Made by a program: the position numbers and the translations under genes. From Candidatus Equicola faecalis (GTDB lineage Bacteria; Bacteroidota; Bacteroidia; Bacteroidales; Bacteroidaceae): DNA of 64,000 nucleotides. Of the stretch, positions 17,520 to 35,765 are shown piece after piece. Each line of letters opens with the position of its first letter. The first letter of the stretch is position 1. Location: the NCBI GenBank assembly GCA_018065185.1, contig JAGHTU010000034.1, positions 25,646-89,645 on the forward strand, written 5' to 3'. The notes beneath the pieces were generated by a model. It worked only from the letters and a program-made list of their open reading frames with translations, was not told the DNA's origin and did not search any database.

Positions 17520-18653
17520 TTAAGCTTTCCGAAATTGTAATAACCTACGCTCAGTTGCGCAACGCCACAAATATTCCATCGGCCCATTATTAAAACGAGA
17601 GAGCCACCATCTGCAGAAAACATTCTGAAGTATAAAGAACAGAATAGCGCATAACATTATCGCCACAAAGGAATATCCATTGAAAGCCAGACCAAAGTAA
17701 TATAAAAATATAGCGGAAAACCAATTCTGCATAGAATAGTTTGTTAAACCACATTTTCCATAGCTTTCAAACCATGAAAGAACTTTATGTGCAATACGCA
17801 AATGGTTATAACTCCATATCACTACAATAGTATAGAAAGTACCTCCTGCAAGATTGAATGCACAACCGACAACGTCATGTAAAGCACTAACATCTTTATA
17901 GAAAGGAAGATAAGTGGCCGCAATCAACAAATAAATAATAGCGGAATATAGCATATGTTTTTTCTGAAATAGCGAGTCCCATTTTTCAATTAACCCAATC
18001 CTTCCCAACCAATATCCTATACAAAAATTTGCTAATGTAATCAAATGGGCAGGTGACAATAAATCTTTAACATAAATCCATAAAGAAGGAAGATATAATT
18101 CATGACATTCCCTAAATGAAATATTTTCGCCATGTCTTTTTAGTTCATTAGCATTATGAAACAATGACAAATCCAGATATTGTAGAACAAAAAATACAAT
18201 ATACAAGAACATCGCAAAGATAATTATCCATTTTTTTGGAAAATTACGCACAAAAGTCAATAGCATTCCGCAAAAACCATAAATCATCAAAATGTCACCA
18301 CCATAAAAGTACTTGTTAATAGCTCCTATCAGCATTAGAATAAAACATCTCCAGGCAAATTTCAAACTCGAATATGATGGCTTTCGCAATATTAAATAGA
18401 AACTAATGCCAAAAAGGACATTGAAAATTAAAGCACATCTTCCATTTACCAATGCAACTATTATTTTTTCCAAATATCGGCTAATTACTGAGGCATTTAT
18501 ACTATCCACTAAACCTATTCCGAATCCATTACCTGTGTGAATCAGTAAAATTCCAAATAATGCAAATGCACGAAGAGCATCTATGGAATGAATCCTTTGA
18601 GGTTTACCCCCCCCCATCGTGCTGTTTATCAACATCTTATTATCAATTTCCAT
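17520..18653 (-). CDS. DUF418/acyltransferase-like membrane protein; contains G9 tract near N-terminus
   Basis: IDALRAFALFGILLIHTGN; multiple TM; C9 (plus strand) at 18607-18615. Confidence 0.75.
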   Translation of the reverse strand: MEIDNKMLINSTMGGGKPQRIHSIDALRAFALFGILLIHTGNGFGIGLVDSINASVISRYLEKIIVALVNGRCALIFNVLFGISFYLILRKPSYSSLKFAWRCFILMLIGAINKYFYGGDILMIYGFCGMLLTFVRNFPKKWIIIFAMFLYIVFFVLQYLDLSLFHNANELKRHGENISFRECHELYLPSLWIYVKDLLSPAHLITLANFCIGYWLGRIGLIEKWDSLFQKKHMLYSAIIYLLIAATYLPFYKDVSALHDVVGCAFNLAGGTFYTIVVIWSYNHLRIAHKVLSWFESYGKCGLTNYSMQNWFSAIFLYYFGLAFNGYSFVAIMLCAILFFILQNVFCRWWLSRFNNGPMEYLWRCATERRLLQFRKA

Positions 18654-18690
18654 TTCTTTTCAAACAATAAGTAGTTCAATTAATTGATAT

Positions 18691-19899
18691 TTACATTTTC
18701 TGATCCAAGTTCTTCCCTTTTTCTTCGTGCTCAAAGTTAGGGATAAACATCTTAATAGCCTCAACAACTTCAGCCTTAGTGAAATCGGCTTTTGCAAAGA
18801 GAGATTCAAGGTCGGTGAAGAAGGTGTTGACCTCTTCCATATTCCTTCTACTCGTTTGCTCAACTACACCAAGAGCAGAGAAACGCTCCATATTGATTTT
18901 CTCCCCAGGAACATAGAACTCTTCGTAGGCTTTTTCGCCAGTGGTGTCTGATTTGAAATATACGACTGGATAATCTTCGGATTCGTATGACATCTCAGCC
19001 GCAAACTTCTTTGCCTCTGGGTCATTAGAGCATTCAACTTTCTTGAATCCCTCTGCCTTTACGAAATCATCACAGATTGCAGAGAAGGTGAGCATCTGGT
19101 CTTCGCCCAACTTCGGAAAGAAGACTTCGCCACCATTACCAAGAATACAAGCTAACATACAAATCTGACCGGATTCCTCTGGACTTACAAAATAGCGTTT
19201 CACATCTGAAGGAGCTGCCAACGGTTGCTTCTTCTGGAGCCTGTGAATCCAACCGTCAGGAAGAGAACCATTGCTGAATGCGACATTGGCAAAACGTGCT
19301 GTCGTTACTTTGAAGTATTTGTTGTAAGCCATCACAAGGTCTTCCATTATACGCTTGGAAGCGCCCATGATATTTACAGGATTGGCAGCCTTATCTGTGG
19401 AAACACAGAAGAAATGCTTTGGAGGATATACTGTAAGCAAGTCCATCAGTTTCTTTGCTTTGATGTCGTTATTCTCGATAAGGGCCTGTACACTATATCT
19501 GTCCTTCTCTGAACGCACGTGCTTGTGTGCTGAGAAATTGGCTACAATATCAAAGCCCTTCTCCTCGCAGAAGATGCGCTCGAATATAGGATCGGCAAAG
19601 TTGAGAGTATAGCAACGGAACTCATCAGGAACATAGAGACCTTCGGTAGAACGCACGTCACGCACCAGTTCTGCAAGACCATTCTCGTTAAGGTCAACAA
19701 CTACAACTTTGGCTGGTTCAAACCTGAGAACAGCCTTGATGAAACTGGAACCAATAGAACCAGCCCCACCTATGACACAAACGGATTTGCCTTTGATTTC
19801 AGCCGTTAGCTTTTCGCTATTAGCCGTTATATCTTTTTGGAACATCGACTCCGGACGGAATGTCACGGAATCGGATATGAATTTGTATAGGTTGAACAT
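18691..19899 (-). CDS. polysaccharide biosynthesis nucleotide-sugar dehydratase (extended SDR, UDP-GlcNAc 4,6-dehydratase-like)
   Basis: GKSVCVIGGAGSIGSSFIKAVLRFEPAKVVVVDLNENGLAELVRD. Confidence 0.85.
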   Translation of the reverse strand: MFNLYKFISDSVTFRPESMFQKDITANSEKLTAEIKGKSVCVIGGAGSIGSSFIKAVLRFEPAKVVVVDLNENGLAELVRDVRSTEGLYVPDEFRCYTLNFADPIFERIFCEEKGFDIVANFSAHKHVRSEKDRYSVQALIENNDIKAKKLMDLLTVYPPKHFFCVSTDKAANPVNIMGASKRIMEDLVMAYNKYFKVTTARFANVAFSNGSLPDGWIHRLQKKQPLAAPSDVKRYFVSPEESGQICMLACILGNGGEVFFPKLGEDQMLTFSAICDDFVKAEGFKKVECSNDPEAKKFAAEMSYESEDYPVVYFKSDTTGEKAYEEFYVPGEKINMERFSALGVVEQTSRRNMEEVNTFFTDLESLFAKADFTKAEVVEAIKMFIPNFEHEEKGKNLDQKM

Positions 19900-19910
19900 A
19901 TTGTGCTTCT

Positions 19911-20969
19911 TTATTTCTCTACAAATTGTTTTAAGTATTCATCCCAGTTGCCTACGTCAATCCAGGAACCTTCATTGATTGGATAGACACCAACTCTACG
20001 ACCTTCTTTCATCAGTTTTTCGATGAGGAAGGTGATGTGATAGAAGGTATTGACCGGTATCTCCTTTATAAGATGTGGCTCAAGAATATACATTCCTGTA
20101 TTTATTTTAAAGGTATAGTTCGGTTTCTCCTTGATGTCTGCCAAGAGCCCGTCTTCCTTGGTCTCAAGAGTTCCGTATGGGATAGCCATATTCTTGATGG
20201 CTGCCACTATTGTGATTTCATTGTGGTTGTCACGATGATATTTCAGGATTTCGGCATAATCATCGACAATAATGCTATCGCAATTGGAAACGAAGAACGT
20301 GGTGTCAATCTGACCGTTCAGAAGATGAATGCTCCCGGCTGTACCGAGAGGTTTGTCCTCTTGAAAATATGAAATATGGTACTGAGGCTTGTTCAGATTG
20401 TCGAAATAACGTTTGATGGTGTCTGCCTTGTAGTTGACCGACACATAGAACCTGTCGCAACCGCAATCGAGGAACCTGTCCATAATATCCTCCATCATAG
20501 TTTGCTCACCGATTGGGATAAGTGGTTTCGGGAGGACATTGGTAAGCGGTCTCAGTCGTGTTCCCTGTCCACCAGCCATAATGATTACCGGAATGTTGAG
20601 ATTAGCTTTCGGCTTCTCAGGTTTTGCCTGGAAGAGGTCTTCCCAGAAGATAACATCGGATATGTGGTTCTGCTCGTCAATGACAGGCATAAACTCATTC
20701 TTGCACTCCTTCATAGAAGTTTTTACCTTATCCATATCATCATAGACAGAAGCGACTTTTGTCCCCTCGCGAAGGATTCCCTCGATAGGAGCATTCATAT
20801 CAATGCCCTTGATGATGGCACGCTGAATATCACCGATACTGATGATATTGAAATAGAGTTCGTCTTTAGTGACGATAAGAAGCTTGTGCTTTACTTCGTT
20901 CATCTGCTTCAGTGCCGATATGACTGAAGCCTTGTAAGAAATACAGAGTTCTTTTATTGCGTCTTTCAT
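19911..20969 (-). CDS. CBS-domain nucleotidyltransferase (sugar-phosphate nucleotidyltransferase)
   Basis: IPVIIMAGGQGTRLRPLTNVLPKPLIPIG with N-terminal CBS-like region. Confidence 0.88.
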   Translation of the reverse strand: MKDAIKELCISYKASVISALKQMNEVKHKLLIVTKDELYFNIISIGDIQRAIIKGIDMNAPIEGILREGTKVASVYDDMDKVKTSMKECKNEFMPVIDEQNHISDVIFWEDLFQAKPEKPKANLNIPVIIMAGGQGTRLRPLTNVLPKPLIPIGEQTMMEDIMDRFLDCGCDRFYVSVNYKADTIKRYFDNLNKPQYHISYFQEDKPLGTAGSIHLLNGQIDTTFFVSNCDSIIVDDYAEILKYHRDNHNEITIVAAIKNMAIPYGTLETKEDGLLADIKEKPNYTFKINTGMYILEPHLIKEIPVNTFYHITFLIEKLMKEGRRVGVYPINEGSWIDVGNWDEYLKQFVEK

Positions 20970-21871
20970 TTCTTCTCAAGTTTATGTGCGGGATTTCCAA
21001 TCCAAGTTTCACCTGCTGGTATGTCTTTGACTACCACTGCCCCCATACCGACAAAAGCATTTTCACCAATATGGACGTAACCTCTGAGGGATGAGTTGGG
21101 AGCAATCCAGACATTGTCGTCTATGATGTTTCCGCCAGATACGTTCACACATCCGGCAATGACGACATTACGTCCTATTTTGTTGTTGTGAGCGATATGG
21201 CAGAGATTATTGATTTTCGTATGATCGCCTATGACGGTATCCGAAAGTGCTCCACGGTCGATGCAGGTGTTTGCTCCAACCTCAACATCATCGCCCATAA
21301 TGAGCGAGCCAATCTGAGGGAAGCGGAAACGGTTGCCATCTTTGTCTCTTTCATAGCCAAAACCGGCTCCACCAAGGATTGCGCCAGATTTGATATAGCA
21401 CCCCTTACCCATCTGGACATCGTCATAGATTTTGACATTGCTGTCAATGAAGCAATTGTCGCCTATGGTGGCTTTCCCTATTACCGTATAAGCGCCCACA
21501 TAAACATCCTTACCTATCGTTGCATCTGGATCGATGATTGCGGTTGGATGGATTGATGGCTTCGGGTGGTTGACAAAGAAGTGATTGCCTACTTGCGCAA
21601 GTGCCATCTTGGGATTCTTGACTACAATCAGAATCTTCCCGTCAACATATTCGACAGTCTCATCCACAAGCATCACCCTGGCTTTGCTCGCCTTCACTAT
21701 CTCCTGCTTATTCGCTTTGGTAGGATTCACCCAATCAAGAGTAGTCTCATTAACCCTATCCACATCGGACAGGTTGTCAATGTAGATTCCTTCGTGCAAG
21801 CCCATCACCTTGATGATGTCCTTTCCAAGGAAATCGATTATTTCATCAACCAGTATCTTTTTAATAATCAT
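20966..21871 (-). CDS. LpxD-like hexapeptide-repeat acyltransferase
   Basis: HPTAIIDPDATIGKDVYVGAYTVIGKATIGDNCFI...GAGFGYERDKDGN. Confidence 0.82.
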   Translation of the reverse strand: MIIKKILVDEIIDFLGKDIIKVMGLHEGIYIDNLSDVDRVNETTLDWVNPTKANKQEIVKASKARVMLVDETVEYVDGKILIVVKNPKMALAQVGNHFFVNHPKPSIHPTAIIDPDATIGKDVYVGAYTVIGKATIGDNCFIDSNVKIYDDVQMGKGCYIKSGAILGGAGFGYERDKDGNRFRFPQIGSLIMGDDVEVGANTCIDRGALSDTVIGDHTKINNLCHIAHNNKIGRNVVIAGCVNVSGGNIIDDNVWIAPNSSLRGYVHIGENAFVGMGAVVVKDIPAGETWIGNPAHKLEKK

Positions 21872-22011
21872 AGTTGTATATGTTTGTCTGTCAGCTTTTT
21901 TTGATGTTAAATGTTAATTTGTTAACTGTTACCGATGTTACCTTGGTTACTCTTGTTTTTCTCTATCCCAGTAGTCTCTGCAACCACCTGGAGCAGTGGC
22001 GGACATTCACG

Positions 22012-22056
22012 AGCCCCTGAAGAGCACTCTATCGCGCCAGCGATTGGGTGCGTGGG
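22012..22056. repeat. 45-bp direct repeat, copy 1 (overlaps 3' end of the 127-aa ORF)
   Basis: agcccctgaagagcactctatcgcgccagcgattgggtgcgtggg. Confidence 0.95.
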
Positions 22057-22412
22057 CGATTATCATCTCTCCATTTATAACCCTTAACGTGCCCGTTCCG
22101 GATTTCAAATACCCGCGCATCTTCACTCAAGACTATTTTTAATATCCTTCCTGCCGCCTTCCCAGCTTCTCTATGAGCATACTGGTGACTCCTTTGTCCA
22201 CCTCTCCTATAATAATCGTATAGTATCTGAACAGGTGTCGTATTCCAATCGCGATTCTCTCCACCAAGAAAGTTACGAACACGAAAAACTTTATGTTTCT
22301 TCTCCGAATTGCACCAAGCATAAACTGCCCCTCGCAGATACACTTTTATTCTGTCAATATCTTCTTGAGATATTCCGTGAACACCAATTAATCTTTCAGA
22401 TGTAGTGAACAT
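22029..22412 (-). CDS. small hypothetical protein upstream-partner of NTPase operon (127 aa)
   Basis: MFTTSERLIGVHGISQEDIDRIKVYLRGAVYAWC...; starts 6 bp after the NTPase stop. Confidence 0.75.
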   Translation of the reverse strand: MFTTSERLIGVHGISQEDIDRIKVYLRGAVYAWCNSEKKHKVFRVRNFLGGENRDWNTTPVQILYDYYRRGGQRSHQYAHREAGKAAGRILKIVLSEDARVFEIRNGHVKGYKWRDDNRPRTQSLAR

Positions 22413-22418
22413 ACCGTT

Positions 22419-25400
22419 TTATACATTAGGGTTGCGATGATAAGTCACCTTAATATTATCGCCCTTATCTATTTTATTGCTAATATATTTCAAATGAGAG
22501 CGCAAATAATCGACAAGCTCGTTGTTCTGTGGATTATTATCTAAGATAGTCTGAGTGTGATATGTATTAAGTTCCGTATAAGGTTCAAGCAACGTCTCAA
22601 CCATATTCACAGTTCGTTCTTCATTAAATGTTGTTGAACGATGCACCTTGTTAATCAATTCAATCCTAATGAACCATGTTCCTTCTCCATTATAAATATT
22701 GAGAGCCTTAGTTATTAGATTGTAATCAGCATCCGAACAATCATTCTGATGATAGAACTCACAAATCATACGAGCATATTCATTTAATCCATCATTATGA
22801 CCTTCCGCCTCTATCAGGCAAGCGTAATCTCTGAGGAAGATATTTTTCTTTTCATCAGGAAGATCCGATGAAAGAATTTCTATTCCAAGTCGGTTTGAGT
22901 TGGTAAAATTCACTTCCCCTTCTGCTGTATCCATTTCGTCAAAATACTTGATGATATATTTGGCTAAGAGGTGAGGGGAATACTTCGACATAAACGCATT
23001 GTAATCTGGACTATAATCCAACAAGTCATTATCTAAGAAAATTTCCAACCTTTCTTCGCTAATACCATCTATCTCTTCCGGGTCAAAGATAAATGTGCAA
23101 CAACCTATCAACTTCTCAAAGGCATAATTATCAAGGGTAGTATTATCTCCGAATAGAAGAACTTGTAGATTTTCGTCACCATCAATGAACTTATATTGTG
23201 ACAATTTATCCGCATTACTGTTGATAAACGGAGCCACATTTGATAATTCATCAAATATTGAAAAGTATTGACGAACGTTCTCCCAGGAAGGTTTTACAAA
23301 GCCGCCCTTGAATACTAATTCATATCTGGATGCCGGTACGTCTTTGAGAAGAGATATCTTATTCTTTTGTTCAGACAAATATAGTCCAACTTGTTCATCA
23401 GTCAACTCTTCATTTTTTACCACATATATCAACGCCTGTTCTGTCTCCTGTTTGCTGGTTGGAGGCAATTGAGAGTACAGCTCCTTTATGCGCCTCAGCA
23501 AGTAAACTTTTACCCGTTCATTGCCTGAGAGAATGCAGCTTATGCTTTCCGTTTTGAACTTTTCACCATAGATAACGAGAAGATTATCAAGATTTATAGT
23601 AAAGTGCTTGTTGTTGATTACATAATCAAACAAGTCTTTTGTTTCCGTCTCAGGGGCTATCAATTTATCAAAGCACAGGCCGGAAAATTCTATGAAACCT
23701 TTGATTTTGCTGCCTTCGAAATTTGATATATGGTTGGCAATAAAAGCATACTTGGAATTCAAAAATTGTTTTTCTTCTAAAGAGATAGAAATGGACTGGG
23801 GTGCTTCGCGGAAATATATAGAGAGGATACTCGCCTGCAATGAATCATCTTCGCAAGCCATTATCACACTTACACATCCATTCCAACCATTGAATAGCTC
23901 AGTAAAGAATTTATTATTCCTGTTTTTATACAAATCATACCCCACTACGAAATCAAGAAAACTCCGGGCAGTATTTGCGAACATACTACACTGTGTATCC
24001 ATATCATTTCGTGAGAAAATATAATTAGCGAGATCATAGTTCAATATACTACGATCAGAAAAATTGTCAGTTGTGATGCCCGAGATAAAAGATGAAATAT
24101 TCTTTAATGGATAGTTATAATCCAAATGTTGTCCCTGAATCACTGAATGCAAGAAATTAGACTCGTCTTCATTAAAAGTTCCATGATAAGTAAAAGAAAT
24201 ATATGATGCATAATCTTCGGCAATATATTCATTTCGAATCATGCTATGGATAGTTTCCGCAAGTTGGCATAACTTATTCTCGTCTTCAGGATGTTTTGAA
24301 GCATTCTTACAAATATCATAAACCATCGGAATAGTAACATCTCCATTTCCAATCTTTCGCATAAGATGGCTGAAGGAATTATTACATATAGCATTGATTT
24401 GGCTTTCCAATGAACGCTTCTCGATTGTATTTACTTCCAACTCAGTCTCCCTATTATACATTTCTTCGTCAAAGTTACCATCTGGATCAATTTCCACAAT
24501 AATATCTTTAAACAGCATGTTATAGCTGGTAGGATTAACCTCATCTGATTCTTGCACAAAACACTGGTCTATTCGATTATTTTTGAATGAATCAAATAAT
24601 TGTTTTGATTTTGAGACTTCCTCAAGGGAGTATTGCTTTCCGCCTATATTTAATTTGACGATAGAATGTTTGTTGTTCAAACTATCCAAAACTGACTTTC
24701 GTAATTTTATAATCGATTCACGATTTTCATCAACAGTCACATTGACTTTTGCAAGATTTGCTTCCAAGTCCTGAGTAAGTCGTTGTGAAAATACCTTCTT
24801 ATTATTTAGAACAGCATAAAGGCAGCCTTCTTTATCATGAAGGTACGAATAATCTCCCGGAAATAGATTTTTGTAAATTGTTATGGCGAGTAACTTCCTC
24901 TTAGACATATTTGAAAAATGGATAGTCTTTTCATAGAGTTGGTACTCATTTATGATGTTTATCAAATCTCTCATTCTGGAGACATAAAGTCCCATCTGTT
25001 TTAAATCCGAGTTACTTATTCCTTTGAACAAATCCTTATGATGGTCAATCATATATTCGCCCGAATTGAAACAATCAATTACCGGGATGACAGGTATGAT
25101 GTAATCAAAGAACTTGGTACGCACCTCGTTCTGGAAGACATCGTCCTTTATGGCATATACAAAGCGTATGATGCGATCCTTTTTTTTGAAATACTCTGAT
25201 TCGTTGAGCAGAATATTCATTTCGCGCAACTTAAGGAACAACTCCTGAGGATGTGAAATACGGTCTAAATCTTCAAAAACAACGATTTCGTATTCGCCAG
25301 CCTTGAAAAAGTATAGAATATCGTCAAGCCATTTGCTGAACAGAGGTTCTTTGTCCTCAAAATTAATTTCACAGTCTTTTGCTTTGATACTTTTTACCCT

Positions 25401-26210
25401 GAAACTGTACAACTTTGGGATAAATATATAGAGAATGCGAAAGACTATAAAAGCCATTATGATTGCTGATGAAATGTCCGCAATAGTGTTGACTATTCCA
25501 CTCTTATCTTTGAGTATATCAAAATATGCATCATAAAATGACTTAACCTGAAGGATCTTCGGCTCAAACAGTACGACAAAGCATACGAAAAACAGGATTA
25601 TGTCAAATGCTATTCTCGTGATTGTGCATTTGTCAAGAACATTTATATGTCTATGACGTGATTGAGCAGTTTTACGGTAATCAGCTTTCTGTATTATTTG
25701 CTGAAAGATTTTATATTCAATCTCGTTCTCATAAACAGTATGCGATTTCGCTTTTTCTTCATCCTTATTGGAAGTTTCTGTTTGGGATACATTATCTGTT
25801 TTCTGCCCATCTTTTGTGCCATTAGTCTCCTCAGATTCCGCGATGTCTGCTGCCAGCAGAGCTACAGTATTATTTGCTACAGATTGCGACTCAAGAAGAT
25901 TTGACAATGAGATACGAAGTACTTTCTTTGATACGCCCTTCAAGGAAAGACACGTATTGATGACACTGCTTTTCCCCGAGCCAAAAACACCAGTAAGAGC
26001 GATATTCCTACATTCTGGCAAAGACAAAGCATACCTAAGTTCCTCTACACTATGGAAAGATGAATCTTCTTTTGCCAGAATGCGAGGAGCCAGCGAGGAA
26101 CGTGTTTCCTCTGAAACCCGTTTCTCTTCAACCTTGTCTTTACGCAGATGTACACAATACGATATATGTTTCTGCACAAATGTTTTGGCTCTTTCGAAAA
26201 GTGTTAACAT
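22419..26210 (-). CDS. large P-loop NTPase with TM helices (YobI-like)
   Basis: Walker A ALTGVFGSGKSSVIN; Walker B IVVFEDLDRI; two or more TM segments around aa 200-270; 1263 aa. Confidence 0.82.
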   Translation of the reverse strand: MLTLFERAKTFVQKHISYCVHLRKDKVEEKRVSEETRSSLAPRILAKEDSSFHSVEELRYALSLPECRNIALTGVFGSGKSSVINTCLSLKGVSKKVLRISLSNLLESQSVANNTVALLAADIAESEETNGTKDGQKTDNVSQTETSNKDEEKAKSHTVYENEIEYKIFQQIIQKADYRKTAQSRHRHINVLDKCTITRIAFDIILFFVCFVVLFEPKILQVKSFYDAYFDILKDKSGIVNTIADISSAIIMAFIVFRILYIFIPKLYSFRVKSIKAKDCEINFEDKEPLFSKWLDDILYFFKAGEYEIVVFEDLDRISHPQELFLKLREMNILLNESEYFKKKDRIIRFVYAIKDDVFQNEVRTKFFDYIIPVIPVIDCFNSGEYMIDHHKDLFKGISNSDLKQMGLYVSRMRDLINIINEYQLYEKTIHFSNMSKRKLLAITIYKNLFPGDYSYLHDKEGCLYAVLNNKKVFSQRLTQDLEANLAKVNVTVDENRESIIKLRKSVLDSLNNKHSIVKLNIGGKQYSLEEVSKSKQLFDSFKNNRIDQCFVQESDEVNPTSYNMLFKDIIVEIDPDGNFDEEMYNRETELEVNTIEKRSLESQINAICNNSFSHLMRKIGNGDVTIPMVYDICKNASKHPEDENKLCQLAETIHSMIRNEYIAEDYASYISFTYHGTFNEDESNFLHSVIQGQHLDYNYPLKNISSFISGITTDNFSDRSILNYDLANYIFSRNDMDTQCSMFANTARSFLDFVVGYDLYKNRNNKFFTELFNGWNGCVSVIMACEDDSLQASILSIYFREAPQSISISLEEKQFLNSKYAFIANHISNFEGSKIKGFIEFSGLCFDKLIAPETETKDLFDYVINNKHFTINLDNLLVIYGEKFKTESISCILSGNERVKVYLLRRIKELYSQLPPTSKQETEQALIYVVKNEELTDEQVGLYLSEQKNKISLLKDVPASRYELVFKGGFVKPSWENVRQYFSIFDELSNVAPFINSNADKLSQYKFIDGDENLQVLLFGDNTTLDNYAFEKLIGCCTFIFDPEEIDGISEERLEIFLDNDLLDYSPDYNAFMSKYSPHLLAKYIIKYFDEMDTAEGEVNFTNSNRLGIEILSSDLPDEKKNIFLRDYACLIEAEGHNDGLNEYARMICEFYHQNDCSDADYNLITKALNIYNGEGTWFIRIELINKVHRSTTFNEERTVNMVETLLEPYTELNTYHTQTILDNNPQNNELVDYLRSHLKYISNKIDKGDNIKVTYHRNPNV

Positions 26211-26369
26211 AGTAATCGTTAACTTGTGAGGTCTATACTATTTGCTTAAGTTTCTTATCAGCATTATAAAGGTTTCTGCTGTCTTACAGTTCTTACAAAT
26301 TTCAAATTTACTACTTCTTCTCAATTCTGTAGCCTCTCTGACCGAAGAGAAGAGTGGCGGTCTCTCTAT

Positions 26370-26414
26370 AGCCCCCGAAGAGCACTCTATCGCGCCAGCG
26401 ATTGGGTGCGTGGG
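26370..26414. repeat. 45-bp direct repeat, copy 2 (upstream of the NTPase start)
   Basis: agcccccgaagagcactctatcgcgccagcgattgggtgcgtggg; one mismatch to 22012-22056. Confidence 0.95.
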
Positions 26415-26504
26415 GCGTTTACTTCGCCAAATTCCCAACCCCCTTCAACTCGTTCTGTATATATTCGAGAGAAGCAATCTTCTCCTTGGTCTCTTCCAAA
26501 TCCT

Positions 26505-26573
26505 CCTTCGAGTACCTCAGGAACCACCCTTCGAGTACCTCAGGAACCACCCTTCGAGTACCTCAGGGACCAC
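26505..26573. repeat. three tandem 23-bp repeats ccttcgagtacctcagg(a/g)accac
   Basis: Read directly at 26505-26527, 26528-26550, 26551-26573. Confidence 0.95.
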
Positions 26574-26677
26574 CTCCGCGTATTATCCGAATTGTCCTTC
26601 GACAAGCGGTTGCCGAGCTCGTCGAGGTACAGGAACCACTCTGTCAGCACATTGCATTTCTTATCTCATTCCTTATC

Positions 26678-26866
26678 TTATTTCCTATACGGCAGTTCTC
26701 CATTTGACCAAAGTATTTTCTTAGCTCTACTCCAACCATGGATTTGACGTTCGCGAGCATATGCTTCTGCGTATGAGGAATGTTCTTCTGCGTACACAAG
26801 TCGAAAAGGTAAATGGGCTTTGGTGAATATATTCAAGGCTTGCAATCTTCTCTTTGGTCTCTTCAA
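26678..26866 (-). pseudogene. C-terminal half of a GIY-YIG endonuclease
   Basis: FTKAHLPFRLVYAEEHSSYAEAYARERQIHGWSRAKKILWSNGE; GIY...YIG half missing. Confidence 0.7.
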
Positions 26867-27189
26867 GATTCAAACGTCTTGTACGTTGCCGTAGCGGGTG
26901 CAGCATATCTTGGTGCCGTGGAATTGCCCATTCTCATCGTAAGTGCCTGATACTCGTGACGCATATCATCCTGCTTCTTCTCGTCGCGTGAGAAGATGCG
27001 GATTTCGCCTATATCCGTGCGGAGGAAGCGGTTGAGTACCGCATTGCCGAATGATCCCGTCCCTCCGGTAATCATCAATGTCTTTCCTGCGAATATGCTC
27101 ATATCGTACGCTCGTAGAAGTAAGTTTCTCTCCGATTCTCTCCTTTTTCTCTCCTTTATTGAAATTTCAGTATGCAGTATATCAGGCAG

Positions 27190-28899
27190 TTACTCATTTT
27201 TCTTCTTCAGTACCCATGCTCTTTTCTCTCCTATTTCTATCCTTCCGCTCATGCGGAGAGAAGTCAGAAGCTTTCCTATTTTCCTAACTTTCTGATCAAA
27301 AGTCAGAGCATCGCTCAACTTGTCCATCAACAGTTTATCAATCTCCGGGCGTTTGGCCGCACCAAATTCAGTGATATAGTTGATAATCAGGCCACGGAAG
27401 TAATCATCATCGAAACTCTTGTTCTTTATATAGTCCGTTTTGAGGCCAACATGTCTGGTAGGCGCTACTACTTTTGCGGAAAGATACAAACTGTTCTTCC
27501 TTCCCTCAACAAAGTTCATTTTCCGCAGATAAGCCACCTGCTCCTGCGAGAGTTTCTTGCCTTTCTGGACCTTATCCAACAACATGATATCAGGGAGTTT
27601 CAGCATAGGGTTGTTTACAAGGATACGGGCAAATTCCTCGTCCATCACCTTCGCATTAATCTCTACGCGCACCATTTCATCCTTCAGGTCATATTCCGGC
27701 ATAGGGAAGAAACGTTTCTTCTGCTGAAGGAACAATTTCCTTATACCGCCTCCTTCGGTTTCAATCATGTGGATATTCTTCATTGCCTCACACAGAAATG
27801 GATTCCTATAGTGCGACTCCGGGCTGTCCGCCATCACCACATCCTCAACAGAGTCGGGAAGAAACTGCCCGTGATTCCTGAACACCAGCTTTTCTCTTAC
27901 GTGCTCCATCACTTCAATCCTGGCATTTTTCATATAGTCCTGATGCGCAATGCAGTTGCAGATTGGCTCTCGAAGCGTGAAGACATCGTACATCTTCATT
28001 GTGTCAGGGAAAATGGAGCCTTCTATCGTATATTCATACCTTGTATTGAAAATCAGGTTCGAGAGTTTTGTCACAGACAGTACCATCGGGATGCCCAGAA
28101 TCTCATGGTTTATGTTCTCATCTCCACCATCATTCTGCACCCACCGTATCTGACACACGTGCGGGAGAAGCCAATGTTCCGCCTCGCTTCGTCCCACAAG
28201 AATCAGAGCCGTATTGGTAATCTTTCCGCCGATTGTCAGTTTTGCCTTATTAAGGAAGGTGATGTCATCCCAACTGTCACACTCTTCCTGCTTGTCGGGA
28301 TGCAGTTCCTTATACTGATTTCTTGCCTCTGCAATAGCCTTCGGGTCCAAGTCGTCAATCGTAGCTCCCTCGACCACTTGTGCCGTCCAATCAATGCTGC
28401 TGTTGTAAATCTGTCTCAAGTAATCAGGAAATTCTTTGAGTTTGGTAAGGTTGCTGCCGATACGCACGTACATCTCGTTTTTGAATGCCACCGGCACTCC
28501 GTGCGTTGAAGGTATCTCGAAAATCACAATACGTTTGCCCGGGGAGAACTCGAATTCTTCAATCACAAAGTTGATTATCGGATCCAGATTCTTCCGCAGC
28601 CACAACTCATAATCCTGTCCACCGATCTTGACATCACGCATCACCAGATTCGTTCCCACGATATCCCACGTCCCGTTTTGCACGCCAAGGACAAGGTAGC
28701 CATGGTCTTTATATTTCAGGCAGGCGCTATTGCTTAATCCCGATAAATAGCAGCCCACACGTTCATACGTGATGCTGGAATGAGACTCACTGATATTGGT
28801 TTTGAACTCCAACCAATCCGCCTCTCCTTCTTTCCCCCTGCCCTTTGCAAAAGCAATCAGCTCAAGCAAAAGCTCTATCTGTTTTTCCTTAGTTCTCAT
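27190..28899 (-). CDS. AlbA_2 (Schlafen-type) ATP-binding protein
   Basis: EADWLEFKTNISESHSSITYERVGCYLSGLSNSACLKYKDHGYLVLGVQNG; typical domain order with RecG-C-like tail. Confidence 0.8.
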   Translation of the reverse strand: MRTKEKQIELLLELIAFAKGRGKEGEADWLEFKTNISESHSSITYERVGCYLSGLSNSACLKYKDHGYLVLGVQNGTWDIVGTNLVMRDVKIGGQDYELWLRKNLDPIINFVIEEFEFSPGKRIVIFEIPSTHGVPVAFKNEMYVRIGSNLTKLKEFPDYLRQIYNSSIDWTAQVVEGATIDDLDPKAIAEARNQYKELHPDKQEECDSWDDITFLNKAKLTIGGKITNTALILVGRSEAEHWLLPHVCQIRWVQNDGGDENINHEILGIPMVLSVTKLSNLIFNTRYEYTIEGSIFPDTMKMYDVFTLREPICNCIAHQDYMKNARIEVMEHVREKLVFRNHGQFLPDSVEDVVMADSPESHYRNPFLCEAMKNIHMIETEGGGIRKLFLQQKKRFFPMPEYDLKDEMVRVEINAKVMDEEFARILVNNPMLKLPDIMLLDKVQKGKKLSQEQVAYLRKMNFVEGRKNSLYLSAKVVAPTRHVGLKTDYIKNKSFDDDYFRGLIINYITEFGAAKRPEIDKLLMDKLSDALTFDQKVRKIGKLLTSLRMSGRIEIGEKRAWVLKKKNE

Positions 28900-28999
28900 A
28901 TTATTAAGTCTTTCAAACCAATAAAGTTACAAAATAATCTCTTTACATTCTCCCTTGCATCTCCGAGCCTTCTCCGAACCTTCTCCGAACCTTGCGGCA

Positions 29000-29919
29000 T
29001 TACTTCGCAAGGTTAGCAATGCCGGCGAACTCGTTTTGAATATACTCCAGACTCGCAATCTTCTCCTTCGTCTCTTCCAGATTGAGCCTCCGTGTATTAT
29101 CGGAATTGAACTCATCTATCGTAGCACGCTTGGTGTCGCCCTCTTTGAAGTACTTGTCATAGTTCAGCCCTCTGTTATCCGCCGGCACACGATAAAAATT
29201 CCCCATATCCTCTGCCTTAGCACACTCTTCTTTCGTCAGCAAGGTCTCGTACATCTTCTCCCCGTGCCGTATTCCAATCACTTTGATATCCTCTTTCTTC
29301 CCACCAAAGAGCTCGCACACCGCCTCCGCCTGAGTCTGGATGGTGCAGGCAGGAGCTTTCTGCACAAGGATATCTCCATTCTGCCCGTTCTCGAAGGCGA
29401 AGAGCACGAGGTCAACTGCCTCTTCGAGACTCATTATGAATCGTGTCATCTTGGGCTCTGTGAGGGTGATGGGGTTGGGGCCTTGCTGATGCCCATTGCA
29501 TTGATAGGGTATGCTGCCTTATCTGTCGAAAGGCAAATGACACATTTGACACCTGCATCAATTGCGGTTTCAAGTACATTATCTGTACCTATAACATTTG
29601 TCTTGACAGCTTCCATCGGGAAGAACTCGCAGGAGGGCACCTGCTTGAGGACTGCCGCATGGAAGATGTAATCCACTCCCTTCATTGCGGTCTTCAGGGT
29701 TGACTTGTTGCGGGCATCACCGATGTAGAACTTTATCTTCCCTGCCACCTCGGGCATCTTGGCCTGATACTCGTGACGCATATCGTCCTGCTTCTTCTCG
29801 TCGCGCGAAAAGATGCGTATTTCGCCTATATCCGTGCGGAGGAAGCGGTTGAGTACCGCATTGCCGAATGATCCCGTCCCTCCGGTAATCATCAAAGTCT
29901 TTCCTGTGAATATGCTCAT
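29000..29919 (-). pseudogene. CapE-like dehydratase, internally deleted and frameshifted
   Basis: ORFs 29446-29919 and 29000-29449 match N- and C-terminal parts of 38280-39386; the block from [13 protein letters not shown] to about QIRNGNP is absent. Confidence 0.88.
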
Positions 29920-30166
29920 ATTGTGAGGTGTTAAATTGTTAATTCCATCTCTTTCTTATCCGTCAAGTGTCAACCGTTCCCGACTTCCTTTATTTCAGTC
30001 GCCCGACTTCCCAGCGGCCCCCGATGGTAGGTCCGAATCTGGGGTTCAATCTGGGGTTCAAATTGGGGTTCATCCATTTTTGTGCCTTTCCTCCAGATTA
30101 TCACTCTGAAATCTGTTTGTCGGATGTTTGCGCATTACGCGAGTGACTTGCGTTTTGCGCAAAGGG

Positions 30167-30391
30167 TTATGCATTTGTTGCGTTAGGTTGGTTGATGCAA
30201 CTGTAAACGTACCCGGGGCTCTGGAAGTAGAGTCTGGAGTCGGGGTTGCGGAGTGCATCGTAGATGGGTGATGTATATACCTTGTTGAAGGCTTCGGGCA
30301 TGGAGAGGCCTTCGCGTTCCATTACTAGGCTTATGAGGTCGGTAGTCATATCTTCGACCATCAGTTCGAATTCTTCGTTTCTGACTGTCAT
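30167..30391 (-). CDS. small conserved protein in DUF3990 operon
   Basis: 74 aa MTVRNEEFELMVEDMTTDLISLVMEREGLSMPEAFNKVYTSPIYDAL; ATGA overlap with upstream gene. Confidence 0.65.
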   Translation of the reverse strand: MTVRNEEFELMVEDMTTDLISLVMEREGLSMPEAFNKVYTSPIYDALRNPDSRLYFQSPGYVYSCINQPNATNA

Positions 30392-30855
30392 ATCTTATGA
30401 AGGAGTTTTACGGCTTCGGGGGTGCAGAAGGCGTATTGAAATGTGATGCCCTGTGGATATTTGATTTCTTCGAGGAACTGCTCGAAGCTTATGTTCTGAA
30501 AACGGAATTTACGCATTTGCTTACCGATGTAGTCATCTGCTATGGGGCCGAAGACTATGTCGTACGGGTGGGTGAAATCCTGACGTTCATCTCTGTTGTC
30601 ATAGACGAATCTTGCCCATTCTCCGCAATACTCATTGAATATCTTGCGGTTGAGCTGAGTCATCTGTGTCTCATCCACTTCGAATGCCGTCACGCAAGGG
30701 GTTCCGCCAAACTGAATGCATTTGGCTTGGGCCATTTCCATCGCCTGTGCGTTGGTGTCGGACAGGTAGAATGCTCTCCCAAAGTCTTTGTTCGGCTTGG
30801 AGAGGGAGAGGTCGATGGTCCCGATGGGTACGTTGGAGCCGTGGTAGAGTATCAT
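30388..30855 (-). CDS. DUF3990-like protein (ADP-ribosyltransferase-like N-terminal motif)
   Basis: MILYHGSNVPIGTIDLSLSKPNKDFGRAFYLSDTNAQAMEMA. Confidence 0.75.
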   Translation of the reverse strand: MILYHGSNVPIGTIDLSLSKPNKDFGRAFYLSDTNAQAMEMAQAKCIQFGGTPCVTAFEVDETQMTQLNRKIFNEYCGEWARFVYDNRDERQDFTHPYDIVFGPIADDYIGKQMRKFRFQNISFEQFLEEIKYPQGITFQYAFCTPEAVKLLHKI

Positions 30856-31079
30856 ATTGTCAGTGTGCCGCCTTGTCGTTTACAGTATGAGGCCATTCCC
30901 TCGACCATATCGGCAAAGCTGAGGGTATGGAGTATGTTGTAGTGCTCGAGATACATCTCTATGCCTCCATAACGGTGGATGTATTCGAAGGATTGCTTGT
31001 CGGTAAGCGAGAACCGTCTGGCAAACTCGTTGATGAGTGCCACAAGGAATCCGATTTGGTTTCTTTTCAGTTCGCTCAT
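30852..31079 (-). CDS. DUF3791-like small protein
   Basis: 75 aa, overlaps start of the DUF3990-like gene by ATGA. Confidence 0.65.
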   Translation of the reverse strand: MSELKRNQIGFLVALINEFARRFSLTDKQSFEYIHRYGGIEMYLEHYNILHTLSFADMVEGMASYCKRQGGTLTI

Positions 31080-31211
31080 AGCGTATTCTGTTGGTTAATC
31101 TTGTAAAGGTAGTGTTAAAATGTTAATTTGTTAAGTGTTAACTCTATTTTCCTGCTTGGGGCTATTATGACCATTTCGGTGATGTCAACGAAATGATATT
31201 GGGTTGTGAAG

Positions 31212-31963
31212 TTAGCTATTTTCGAACTGCTTGGGGTCTGGCATATTGTCTATCAGGTACTGGCGTATGGTTTCTTCGGACGGGAGATGGAGCATATATT
31301 TGCCTACATAGATGTCTTCGAGTCCTTCGGTTGAGTACTTGACAAGCGTTTCGTTATAATCGGTGCAGAGGAGCAGGCTCCAACCTTTCAGTTGTAATTC
31401 TCGTTTTACGGCTTCTTCTTGGGTTTGGTATTCTTCGTAATATACAAGTTCTACAGGCAGATGCTGCTTGGTGAGGATATATGTGTTTGCCATGGCTCAG
31501 AAGATTTTGCAACCGCTGATTGCAAAATTGGTAACGATTGATTTTCAGTCGATTGAAATATTGCGGGCAGTGACCGCAATTTCTTGGCCGGTAGTTCTGT
31601 AGGCCTTTGCATCTGACTCTGTAGATAGTTGAGGATCTCGCTCTGCAACTGTGGATATACATTGTAGAATGCGCGATATTCGTAGAGGCGTCTCCATGTC
31701 ATCCCCTTGCGGTTGATGCGTTTGGCGAGGGTCTTGAGGAGCTGTTCACCATATTGTGCGCGATCGGCTCCGTGTTGCTCGAACTCCACAATGTAGAAGC
31801 CGATGAACCAGTTGCGAGCGGTGAGCATGCAGTTGACGGCATGGGCGGCCTGCTGACGGAGAGTTTCGTCAACCTGCACGATGCGGTCGGCAAGTTGCCC
31901 AAGGGTCATTGCACCCTCGGTTCCTGCTGTCATTGGCTGTATGTTGTTTTTGTCGTTGGACAT
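31212..31963 (-). pseudogene. DUF1016 (YhcG-type) gene disrupted by a GIY-YIG fragment
   Basis: N-part: MTLGQLADRIVQVDETLRQQAAHAVNCMLTARNWFIGFYIVEFEQHG; 3' ORF = TKQHLPVELVYYEEYQTQEEAVKRELQLKGWS (GIY-YIG) fused to DUF1016-like tail LVKYSTEGLEDIYVGKYMLHLPSEETIRQYL. Confidence 0.75.
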
Positions 31964-32010
31964 AAATCGTTGTTTTTCTTGTAAAGGTAGCGGTCTTGCG
32001 CGTTGGTTCG

Positions 32011-32853
32011 TTATTCGGCGAGTTCGGCTTTGATATCCAGGGCCTTCTTGTCGGAGGCGTTGGATTCGGAGAGGATGGAGTGGCCGAGTCGAGATTCGAT
32101 GTCTTCGCGGGCGTTTTTGGCAACAGAGCCTCCCTCCTTCGCAATGTTGCGGCTCAGACTGAATGTTTCAGGCTGGCGTGACTTCGATATGGATGTAGTG
32201 GTGACTTCCACCAGCATATTGAGCACCAGCTCCAGATTGGTCATATTGTCGCGCAGGCTCTCCTTTTTCAGCCCCTTCATCTGTTTGTATTCTTGAACAG
32301 ACATTCCGCTCCAGGCGCGTGTCATATCGTTTGTCAGGATTGCGTATTCCTTTTCCTTGGTGATTCCGCGGGCCTTCCACTCGTCCGTCAACTCCTTGCG
32401 CATCTCTATCGTCTGGAGCCGCTGGTTAATCCAAGCTTCGGGATAGCCCTTGGCGCGATAATAATCAGCACCCCTGAGAATCGCCTTCTCCGGATCGGCT
32501 ATCTCGTCAAGGCGCTCACTTCCCACCTGCGCGAGCCACATCTTGAACGGCTCTGCCTTGGGAGATGGGATACTCTGGATAAGCCGTAGCGTGTCGGCAG
32601 TAGTGAAGCAGTCGGTCTGATAAAGTTTCCCATTGGACGCTTTCATTTTCAACTCGTGACAATTTGTCACGACTTCACTGCCTTCCTTCAAAAGCCTCTG
32701 TTTCAACTTCCTCCAGTAGGCCGTAGGGTCCTTGCTGGCGGACTCAGCCAATACATTACAGACATCAGCAGCAGAGAACAACCATTCCTCGTTCTCCGCA
32801 TCCCAAGCATAGCGCACCTTCACGCCCTCAAATAATTGAATTTTGTTCTCCAT
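32011..32853 (-). CDS. Bro-N/antirepressor-like protein
   Basis: KIQLFEGVKVRYAWDAENEEWLFSAADVCNVLAES. Confidence 0.75.
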   Translation of the reverse strand: MENKIQLFEGVKVRYAWDAENEEWLFSAADVCNVLAESASKDPTAYWRKLKQRLLKEGSEVVTNCHELKMKASNGKLYQTDCFTTADTLRLIQSIPSPKAEPFKMWLAQVGSERLDEIADPEKAILRGADYYRAKGYPEAWINQRLQTIEMRKELTDEWKARGITKEKEYAILTNDMTRAWSGMSVQEYKQMKGLKKESLRDNMTNLELVLNMLVEVTTTSISKSRQPETFSLSRNIAKEGGSVAKNAREDIESRLGHSILSESNASDKKALDIKAELAE

Positions 32854-32957
32854 AATTTCTTTGAATAAAGAATGTTGATTTCCGTTACCTGGGTTACCTT
32901 CGTTATTTCTATCTCACCGTCATACAAATTGTAAAAATACTGCTTCTTCTTGGAATT

Positions 32958-33347
32958 TCAGTTGCTTCTCGCTTCCTTCTCTCCCTCGACAAACTCGGGA
33001 TAAACTCCGGTTCCTCCATACCGGCCTGCGTGCGACTGGATGCCGATGGCTCCGGTTTTCTGTATCCATTCCTTGACAGTGAGGATAAACCGATTTGTGC
33101 CGGCCGAGGTTTTAATCCCATCGAATTCGATGGGATTAAAACAAGGATTGTTGAGCTTTTCCCATATTCCAAGGTAGTCTATCGTGTCTTTGAGCCGTAA
33201 CCAGTTGCCTATTATCATGTCAGTGCGGACAGGGTCGGGCTCGTATGCCTTTATCATGTCTGTAAGACTGATATAGTTGCTCTTGTCGAAGCCCTGCACC
33301 ACACTTATGGGCTTGTCGTTGATGGTTATCTGTGCTGTCTTGGACAT
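32958..33347 (-). CDS. KilA-N domain protein, apparently truncated
   Basis: ITINDKPISVVQGFDKSNYISLTDMIKAYE...IQSHAGRYGGTGVYPEFVEGEKEARSN*; C-terminus diverges after GRYGGT. Confidence 0.7.
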   Translation of the reverse strand: MSKTAQITINDKPISVVQGFDKSNYISLTDMIKAYEPDPVRTDMIIGNWLRLKDTIDYLGIWEKLNNPCFNPIEFDGIKTSAGTNRFILTVKEWIQKTGAIGIQSHAGRYGGTGVYPEFVEGEKEARSN

Positions 33348-33530
33348 ATCTTGAGTTTTTGTAAAGGTAGTGGGTTTTGTTCAATTGTTATTGTATAGGT
33401 TTACTTATTATCCGTTGGATCCTGCGGCTTTTCTTCGTTGGCTTGGGCTTTCTTTGTCGCGCCACCTGTTCAGTCACAATGCCGTCACTATGCCCGGAAT
33501 GGCACGTAACTGAGGTCGGAGGTTCTCAAA

Positions 33531-33809
33531 CTATTCTATTTCTTTTCTTCCGGTGTCGGTGAGACGGTAGCGCTGGCCTCGGTGGTTGTGGTTTTCCGGA
33601 TGGGTCATCGTTACAAGGCCATCTGCTATCAAGCTGTTTAGAACTGACAACCGGAAACTTCGTTTGTCTTTGTATCCTGCCGCTTTCATAAGTTCCAGAA
33701 TGCCTTTCTCGCCATTTGCCAGCAAACGCATTACTGCCAACTGCTGACTTGTGAGTGGTTTGTGGGTAGTCCGACTTAATTTGTGGGTGGTTTGTGGGTG
33801 GTTTGACAT
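33531..33809 (-). CDS. winged-helix domain protein, possibly the 3' remnant of a larger gene
   Basis: PLTSQQLAVMRLLANGEKGILELMKAAGYKDKRSFRLSVLNSLIADGLVTMTHPENHNHRGQRYRLTDTGR. Confidence 0.5.
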   Translation of the reverse strand: MSNHPQTTHKLSRTTHKPLTSQQLAVMRLLANGEKGILELMKAAGYKDKRSFRLSVLNSLIADGLVTMTHPENHNHRGQRYRLTDTGRKEIE

Positions 33810-34038
33810 TCCCTTTTCCCACCTCTCTATCCTGCACTCGTGTTTCTTGGTCTTCTTGTTGTAGTTTATGCCTACGAGCAGGTTTCACCCGCAAATTTTC
33901 CTTCTTATCACGAAATTAAGTTACACATTATCTTTTTACTTGAAATCAAAGCATAGATACGTTTTTAACCGCCTCGAATTTCACACGGTTTGTCGTCTGA
34001 TTTGGTAAAGGTGGCGGGGTTGCGCAACTTCTCGCGGG

Positions 34039-34902
34039 TTAGTCGTTCTTCGGCAGTTTCATGGCGGTCTTGACGATTTGCTTTTCTTCGGAGGCTACTT
34101 TGCGCTCGACTTTCTTTATGTCTTCGGCTGCCGGAAGGTTCTCGGGGCGTATGCCTCGCGCTCCAAGCATCTTACGGACTGTGCGGTTGTTCTGGATATG
34201 CTCGGTGGTGATGGAGGCTTCGCCCTGAAGGTCTTTCTGGTCAACGTTGTAGTTGGTCATCTCGGTGGCGAGATTCTTGGCCGCAATGGTGAGGGTGGGC
34301 AGAAAATCGGCCAGCGGGCGGGTGGATTTGATGCCGAGGCGCTTCTTCATATCTTCGGTGGTGTGGCCGCCAAAGAGTGCTGTGTCGCCCTTGGAACGGA
34401 TGCAGCCGTAACCACGGTCATCGACTCCCCTCTCGAAGATGTTCTGCGAAAGTTGTTTCTCGGATGCACGAAGCCGGTCACGGGTCTCGAGTCGGGAGAG
34501 CAGATTGAGGCGCTCTTCAATGAGTTCGACCTTGCGGGTCTGAACGGCAAAGTAGCTCTGTGCGAAGGCAATCTCCTCTTTCTTGGGATCACCGTTCATC
34601 GCTATAAGATAGCAGGCGTATCGGGTGAGCATGAAGTCGTCAACTTCTCGCTGGCCGCCTTTGCCGATGGTTATCATTTTCGTGACCTCACGAAAATGAT
34701 CATCCGCATTGATTTTCTGCGACTTGCACGATTCGATGGCGCGCGCAATGGCACTCTGGAAGTTTTCCCAACGAGCATAACCGAGGACTGTCATCAGCTC
34801 GCGTGCGAACCATACCTCCACCTGCTCTCCCCTCTCGCCTTCGATGTACTGCGCAATGCTGTCCAGCGAGCCTTTGTACCTGATTATGCTGTTCCTGTCC
34901 AT
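34039..34902 (-). CDS. DinD-like DNA-damage-inducible protein
   Basis: VEVWFARELMTVLGYARWENFQSAIARAIESCK...DDFMLTRYACYLIAMNGDPKKEEIAFAQSYFAVQTRK. Confidence 0.85.
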   Translation of the reverse strand: MDRNSIIRYKGSLDSIAQYIEGERGEQVEVWFARELMTVLGYARWENFQSAIARAIESCKSQKINADDHFREVTKMITIGKGGQREVDDFMLTRYACYLIAMNGDPKKEEIAFAQSYFAVQTRKVELIEERLNLLSRLETRDRLRASEKQLSQNIFERGVDDRGYGCIRSKGDTALFGGHTTEDMKKRLGIKSTRPLADFLPTLTIAAKNLATEMTNYNVDQKDLQGEASITTEHIQNNRTVRKMLGARGIRPENLPAAEDIKKVERKVASEEKQIVKTAMKLPKND

Positions 34903-34955
34903 ATTGTTATTTTGTCTAATATGCTGTTTACTGTAAAGATAGTGGTTTGCGCAAA

Positions 34956-35765
34956 CTATTTGCAGAAACTTTCGCAAATTTCTTCAGCATATTCGCTGTC
35001 GAATTCCTCGGGGTCAAGATCCTGAGGGTCGATGCCGAGCCATTCAAGGCGCTCCTTTTCTTCTGAGGTGAGGCGCTTGCGGGCGCGTTTCTTCTCAATT
35101 ATTGCCAGCAGGTCCTGGTAGCCCCACGGTCCTCCGATGTCTTCGGGCGGACAGGCGCGTTCGCCTTTGATGAAACGGACGACCCGGGGTTCTCCGTCTT
35201 CGTAGTCGGCAACTGATGAGAGCTTGACCTCGTGGAGCCAGCCGTCTCCGAAGTCATATTCGAGCTCAATAGCCTTGCCCTTTTCGCTCAGAACTTCAGA
35301 AAGAGTGAAGTCTTCCTGATTGTGGTTGCGGTCTTCATCAAACGGCAGGAAGAAGCTGTCCTCTCCTTCGCGCTGGTAGGCCGGCGAATAGTCGTGCCCT
35401 TTGATGTGGAAGGCATTGAGGTGACCTCCTATCCATCCCATCAGGTCAAGGATGAGGTCGGCAAGGTGCCTGAGGGTGATGTTTGACGGGACCTCGAATT
35501 TGCGGTAGATGGCAGGAGTGATATGCTTGAGGGTCACCCTGAGGGTGTATTTACGTGCCGGATCGTCCTCGCGGAAATGAGGGTAGCGCGTTTCCGTATA
35601 TGTCGGTCTCTTTTTGGAATGCTTGCCCTCTTTAGACTGTACGTCCTTGCCCTCTGGTGACTTCGCCATAAACATCTGGACAAATTTCATCATGTCCTCG
35701 CGCTCGGCCGGGGACATTGAGGCTATCGCCTGATAAAGTTCGTTTTCATCTATTGGCGCTTTCAT
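34956..35765 (-). CDS. plasmid pRiA4b ORF-3 family protein
   Basis: YTLRVTLKHITPAIYRKFEVPSNITLRHLADLILDLMGW...FDYDFGDGW-type motif (LEYDFGDGWLHEV). Confidence 0.88.
   Translation of the reverse strand: MKAPIDENELYQAIASMSPAEREDMMKFVQMFMAKSPEGKDVQSKEGKHSKKRPTYTETRYPHFREDDPARKYTLRVTLKHITPAIYRKFEVPSNITLRHLADLILDLMGWIGGHLNAFHIKGHDYSPAYQREGEDSFFLPFDEDRNHNQEDFTLSEVLSEKGKAIELEYDFGDGWLHEVKLSSVADYEDGEPRVVRFIKGERACPPEDIGGPWGYQDLLAIIEKKRARKRLTSEEKERLEWLGIDPQDLDPEEFDSEYAEEICESFCK

What the first reader, a model, noticed from the sequence alone, without database searches (positions are those of the whole stretch)
22012..26414. 45-bp direct repeats bracket the YobI-like NTPase cassette
Seen: 22012-22056 and 26370-26414 match at 44 of 45 bases. 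Weaker similarity continues on one side (agtggcgg...). Copy 1 includes the 3' end and stop of the 127-aa ORF (RTQSLAR*); copy 2 lies upstream of the NTPase and also encodes RTQSLAR*. Inference: either cassette insertion duplicated the 3' end of a pre-existing small gene, or this is a repeat unit specific to the small ORF. Recombination between the copies would excise both genes.
Basis: partly seen in the sequence, partly recalled or inferred. Interest (0 to 1): 0.8.

Follow-up and report, generated by a model that had tools for sequence, protein, structure and literature searches.

The report
Old hairpin repeat flanking defence genes
A rare, hairpin-forming stretch of DNA occurs twice in a bacterium's surface-sugar gene cluster, on either side of a two-gene unit headed by a likely anti-phage gene; the repeat is real, but its two copies are old and diverged, so they are not the scar of a recent insertion and more likely mark operon junctions.

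Summary
The repeat is real: 22012-22056 and 26370-26414 match at 44 of 45 bases, beyond chance. It is the conserved head of a longer element ("E"), about 85 bp at copy 1 (E1) and 136 bp at copy 2 (E2). The 1,263-aa gene between the copies is a Tmn/YobI-like NTPase. The 127-aa ORF runs into E1: homologues end where E begins, so "RPRTQSLAR" is repeat-encoded.

E is not high-copy: two copies in this 2.1-Mb draft genome and one in a second genome (L005/L019), also in a FnlABC polysaccharide locus, with no Tmn unit found beside it. No other credible copy was found.

Recent duplication by cassette insertion is not supported. Outside the core, E1 and E2 differ from each other at least as much as each differs from the other genome's copy. 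E2 shares a further ~45 bp with that copy, so E2 probably predates the Tmn gene there. The core folds as an imperfect hairpin, and similarity stops sharply at its upstream edge.

Best reading: a discrete, rare hairpin element at operon junctions of this locus, probably cis-regulatory; a foreign defence unit was spliced between two copies. Excision across 38 identical bp is possible but unproven.

The parts
22012..22056 (-). E1 core: copy 1 of the repeat (imperfect hairpin), at the 3' end of the 127-aa ORF
   Evidence: 44/45 to copy 2; hairpin fold
21973..22056 (-). E1, full extent of similarity to the copy in the second genome (about 85 bp)
   Evidence: BLAST 88% over 85 bp to L019:11200-11284; shuffle test
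26370..26414 (-). E2 core: copy 2 of the repeat, 2-5 nt after the stop codon of a decayed fnlA fragment
   Evidence: hairpin fold z -3.75 on + strand, -2.3 on - strand
26282..26417 (-). E2, full extent of similarity to the copy in the second genome (136 bp), including AT-rich promoter-like part upstream of the NTPase
   Evidence: 85% over 136 bp; shuffle test
22419..26210 (-). Tmn/YobI-like P-loop NTPase, 1263 aa
   Evidence: Pfam PF20693 1.7e-88; PADLOC Tmn 8.6e-61; GC 36%
22029..22412 (-). 127-aa ORF; its last 9 codons and stop come from E1
   Evidence: no Pfam, PADLOC or NCBIfam family; homologues end at the repeat edge
26419..27107 (-). decayed third copy of fnlA (5' piece, middle piece, two 3' pieces) directly upstream of E2
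   Evidence: matches to 29762-29924, 38842-38906, 29037-29083, 29000-29082
20966..21871 (-). lpxD-like acyltransferase, first gene of the glycan module downstream of E1
   Evidence: hexapeptide repeats; LpxD-type models

Best explanation
E is a discrete, rare, non-coding element of FnlABC-type polysaccharide loci in this bacterial group. Its head is a nearly invariant 45-bp imperfect hairpin (12-base arms with two mismatches or one plus a G-U pair, 4-base loop, outer GC stem), followed by about 40-90 bp of less conserved, increasingly AT-rich sequence. In the window both copies sit directly after the end of one gene and 140-160 nt before the start codon of the next gene. I infer that E is a cis-acting junction element (5' leader or operator) for the downstream unit and not an insertion scar. 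A foreign, low-GC defence unit (Tmn-like NTPase plus small ORF) was spliced into the locus between E2, with its promoter-like part, and E1. Shown: anatomy, rarity, third copy in the same kind of locus, hairpin fold, and old divergence outside the core. Inferred: the regulatory role, the order of events, and that the NTPase is now expressed from the E2 side.
For: Third copy in another genome's FnlABC locus whose fnl genes are about 73-82% identical to the window's. Core 45/45 between E2 and that copy while the rest of E has drifted to 76-80%; chance about 4e-5 at 80% identity per site. Sharp upstream edge in all three copies: upstream flanks no better than shuffles. E2 and the other genome's copy remain related for 136 bp, up to 72 bp before the NTPase start, though no Tmn unit was found in that genome at DNA level. 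Core hairpin more stable than shuffles, z -2.3 to -3.75 for E2 and -1.3 to -2.8 for E1. Tmn unit foreign by GC and by lack of close relatives in the genus.
Against: No expression data. Only three copies, one change within the core, so covariation cannot be tested. No Rfam match. The longer element folds no better than shuffles. In the second genome the gene downstream of E is unknown (contig end). If E were a general regulator of such loci, more copies would be expected in a genus of several hundred genomes; none were found. Core identity could also come from recent exchange between genomes.
Confidence: 0.42

Rival explanations
1. E is a recombination site. Cassettes (gene plus E) are inserted and removed at it by a recombinase acting in trans, much as integron cassettes are at attC. 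The Tmn NTPase, the small ORF and E1 would be one cassette.
For: Direct repeats at both ends of the unit; both window copies abut the end of a gene, as attC sites do; core is a 28-bp inverted repeat within an imperfect hairpin; sharp upstream edge; integrase-family genes exist elsewhere in the genome.
Against: E2 and the second genome stay related for about 90 bp beyond the core toward the NTPase, so the upstream junction of the unit is not at the core. The third copy does not follow a gene end. No Phage_integrase gene on this contig. The attC boxes RYYYAAC/GTTRRRY are not seen at the core ends (sequence). Copies are old and diverged outside the core.
Confidence: 0.15
2. Neutral patchwork: E is a leftover intergenic repeat with no present role. 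Repeated illegitimate or homologous recombination in a decaying region left two old copies, and the Tmn unit lies between them by accident.
For: Three fnlA copies in successive stages of decay and several short repeats next to E2; E is absent from nearly all relatives.
Against: Neutral drift does not explain a 45-bp core identical between genomes whose neighbouring genes differ by about 20%, unless the core was exchanged recently.
Confidence: 0.3
3. One reading: a recent insertion of the NTPase cassette duplicated the end of the small gene, leaving a repeat at each side.
For: 44 of 45 bases identical, direct orientation, on both sides of the unit.
Against: A recent duplication would be alike over its whole length. 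Beyond the core E1 and E2 match at 30 of 40 aligned positions with the lowest score of the three pairs, and not at all from +85 on. The third copy has no small gene, and homologues of the small ORF end before the repeat.
Confidence: 0.06

Closest known systems
Leader RNA hairpins read by NusG paralogues (LoaP dfn hairpin, PMC12691694; UpxY-controlled capsule operons of Bacteroides)
   Same: Small hairpin between genes of a long biosynthetic locus; a UpxY-family gene heads the second genome's locus.
   Different: The LoaP hairpin has a UNCG loop and lies in the operon's 5' leader before a terminator; E has another loop and no terminator was found. No UpxY-like gene was found in the window or the first 20 kb of the contig. 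Whether E is transcribed is unknown.
Integron attC sites and gene cassettes
   Same: Imperfect hairpin directly after a gene end, repeated in direct orientation around a gene unit.
   Different: No attC boxes, no linked integrase, one copy not at a gene end, and the upstream junction lies away from the core.
REP/MITE-type interspersed elements
   Same: Short non-coding unit with a hairpin and one sharp edge.
   Different: Two copies per genome instead of many; no terminal inverted repeats or target duplication seen; bound to one kind of locus.
Tmn anti-phage system (KAP-type NTPase with transmembrane segments; PMC11846954)
   Same: The gene between the repeats matches the PADLOC Tmn model and Pfam YobI-ATPase.
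   Different: The PADLOC match covers residues 23-707 of 1263; the small ORF is not next to seven Tmn homologues of the genus.

Membership tests
Tmn / YobI-like NTPase (gene between the repeats) | Match to the family profile | tested here: met
   PF20693 298 bits against cut-off 27; PADLOC Tmn 204 bits
Tmn / YobI-like NTPase (gene between the repeats) | Protection against phage | not testable with these tools
   Needs a plaque assay in a laboratory strain
Integron cassette / attC | Imperfect hairpin directly after the cassette gene | tested here: inconclusive
   Hairpin present; E1 and E2 abut gene ends, the third copy does not
Integron cassette / attC | RYYYAAC / GTTRRRY core sites at the hairpin ends | tested here: not met
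   Read from the sequence: ends are GCCCCAC and GGGGGCT
Integron cassette / attC | Linked IntI-type integrase | tested here: not met
   Seven Phage_integrase matches in the genome, none on this contig; whether any is IntI was not examined
Recent target duplication by insertion | Copies alike over the whole duplicated length | tested here: not met
   Copies diverge just outside the 45-bp core
High-copy interspersed repeat (REP/MITE) | Many copies across the genome | tested here: not met
   Two copies in G000, one in G199; drafts may drop repeats
UpxY/LoaP-type leader element | Transcribed in the 5' leader of the controlled operon | not testable with these tools
   No transcript data; position 140-160 nt before start codons fits but does not prove it
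Known structured RNA family | Rfam match | tested here: not met
   No match up to E = 1 in 20500-31500

The most novel reading that the evidence does not exclude
E is a new kind of recombination hairpin through which surface-polysaccharide loci of this group take up and lose defence-gene cassettes, using a recombinase encoded elsewhere in the genome.
Probability: 0.1. Interest if true: 0.8.

Novelty: new member of a known kind. Interest (0 to 1): 0.36.

Why it matters
Genes for surface glycans, which are common phage receptors, and phage-defence genes share one locus here and meet at a conserved hairpin element. If E controls or recombines these units, it would link surface variation to defence content. 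As the evidence stands, the main result is a correction: the repeats are older than a recent cassette insertion would allow, and the small gene's end was altered by the repeat rather than being its source.

Tried and rejected
Rfam: nothing. BLASTN of E2 against plasmid and phage collections: nothing. Exact-motif scans of viral contigs: nothing. Covariance model in 249 genus genomes: one extra weak match (G526, E 0.009), rejected because no alignable similarity was found at the site. Palindrome pattern in 398 genus genomes: two extra matches, rejected; one lies inside a coding gene (L050), the other is a separate long palindrome without E-like flanks (L051). Intrinsic terminator: not found at E. 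A small conserved peptide inside E: one frame is open in all three copies, but there is no shared start and the copies differ by an indel just past the core (sequence). Empty-site search with the lpxD-like gene: one distant relative (46% identical) in 150 genus genomes. The small ORF as a fixed Tmn partner: seven Tmn loci from the genus lack it, and its homologues sit beside other genes. Literature searches for attC sites or interspersed palindromes in Bacteroidales gave nothing on point.

Full report
The observation. The longest exact match is 38 bp. Similarity goes on at one side only, toward lower coordinates (113 nt at 73%; 62 bp at 89%). The genes around are on the minus strand, so in gene direction the repeat has a sharp upstream edge and a fading downstream side.

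Surroundings. The window lies on one contig of a draft genome of 2.09 Mb and holds a surface-polysaccharide locus: gmd-, fcl-, fnlB-, fnlC-, fnlA- and ugd-like genes at 36.9-47.8 kb, then a stretch with BRO-N, KilA-N, DUF1016 and DUF3990 genes, a broken fnlA (29000-29919), an AlbA_2-domain gene, fnlA fragments (26419-27107), copy 2 (E2), the NTPase, the 127-aa ORF, copy 1 (E1), and a glycan module that begins with an lpxD-like gene. The gmd and fcl names rest on my reading of the translations. The NTPase matches YobI-ATPase (1.7e-88) and the PADLOC Tmn model (8.6e-61). Its GC is 36% against 43% for the window, and its nearest relatives among 299 genus genomes are about 35% identical, so it was probably acquired horizontally.

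The small ORF. Five homologues from 393 genomes of the order are about 118-120 aa long and stop 3-9 residues after a shared tryptophan. The window protein has four residues after that tryptophan and then runs into the repeat. The last nine residues, RPRTQSLAR, are therefore repeat-encoded. No Tmn gene was seen next to the homologues in the short loci fetched; one is beside MobC and relaxase genes, another beside a putAbiC gene. Seven Tmn homologues from the genus have no such ORF nearby.

How common is the repeat? There are two copies in the own genome by DNA search, by pattern with up to three mismatches, and by covariance model. There were none in 198 relatives with up to three mismatches, none credible in 249 genus genomes with the model, none by palindrome pattern in 397 other genus genomes that held up, and none in plasmids, phages or viral contigs. 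An exact 28-base scan of the GTDB species collection found one more copy, L005, in another Bacteroidales draft genome. That contig (L019) is also a polysaccharide locus, with a UpxY-family gene, fnlB, fnlA and fnlC upstream of the repeat. Its fnl genes are 73-82% identical to the window's in the aligned segments. A DNA search of that genome with window 18600-31500 found fnlA and the repeat but nothing of the Tmn unit or of the lpxD-like gene. That draft may be incomplete, and the contig ends about 140 bp past the aligned part of the element, so what follows E there is unknown.

Age of the copies. In the 45 bases downstream of the core, E1 and the other genome's copy match at 34 of 43 aligned positions, E2 and the other copy at 32 of 42, and E1 and E2 at 30 of 40 with the lowest score of the three. 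From +85 to +130 only E2 and the other copy are related (37/44; 0 of 2000 shuffles reach it). Upstream of the core no pair exceeds shuffles. So the two window copies are not a recent duplicate pair, and E2 with its AT-rich part resembles a locus in which no Tmn gene was found. The NTPase start codon (26210) is 72 bp beyond the end of that shared part (26282). The upstream junction of the Tmn unit therefore lies away from the repeat core, while its downstream end coincides with the edge of the E1 core.

What the core looks like. On the + strand it reads GCACTC-T-ATCGC-GCCA-GCGAT-T-GGGTGC with an outer GCCC(C)/(G)GGGC stem, an imperfect hairpin. As RNA, E2 has z = -3.75 on the + strand and -2.3 on the - strand; E1 has -2.8 and -1.3. 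The longer elements fold no better than shuffles. With three sequences and one or two changes in the core, covariation cannot be tested. It is not in Rfam and not a terminator by the scan. The core is 45/45 between E2 and the other genome while neighbouring genes and the rest of E have drifted by 20-25%; at 80% identity per site the chance of that is about 4e-5. This suggests constraint, but recent exchange between genomes is not excluded.

Interpretation. I favour a discrete, rare, hairpin-headed junction element that acts in cis on the downstream unit, between two copies of which a foreign defence unit was spliced. The regulatory role is inferred from position and conservation only, hence the moderate confidence. 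A cassette-recombination site is the main alternative function. It accounts well for both window copies abutting gene ends, and less well for the displaced upstream junction, the lack of an integrase-family gene on the contig, and the third copy that does not follow a gene end. A neutral patchwork is the main non-functional rival, supported by three fnlA copies in successive stages of decay. RecA-type recombination between the 38 identical bases could delete the Tmn unit, but nothing here shows that it does.

Limits. Both genomes are drafts; assemblies can lose or misjoin repeats, and the exact bracket in the window has not been checked against reads. The kinship of the second genome to the first was not given by the tools.

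Noticed in passing
window 41469-43133 (-): The FnlB/WbjC-like reductase carries a DUF559 (nuclease-like) domain inserted in frame, splitting its C-terminal polysaccharide-synthesis domain in two; the counterpart in L019:3454-4668 lacks the insert.
   Followed up: partly
window 38280-39386, 29000-29919, 26419-27107 (-): Three copies of fnlA: one intact, one broken by deletion and frame change, one reduced to pieces; the 5' pieces of the last two are 96% identical.
   Followed up: partly
window 26505-26574: Three tandem copies of a 23-bp unit (CCTTCGAGTACCTCAGGAACCAC) within the decayed fnlA stretch next to E2.
   Followed up: no
window 30167-34977: Cluster of small genes of phage or defence type (BRO-N, KilA-N, DUF1016 N-terminal, GIY-YIG-like, DUF3990) between two parts of the polysaccharide locus.
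   Followed up: no
L014-L018: The 127-aa ORF belongs to an unnamed family of about 118-120 aa, seen beside MobC and relaxase genes (L015) and a putAbiC gene (L018); invariant residues include a GAVY motif and GG.N..W..TP.
   Followed up: partly
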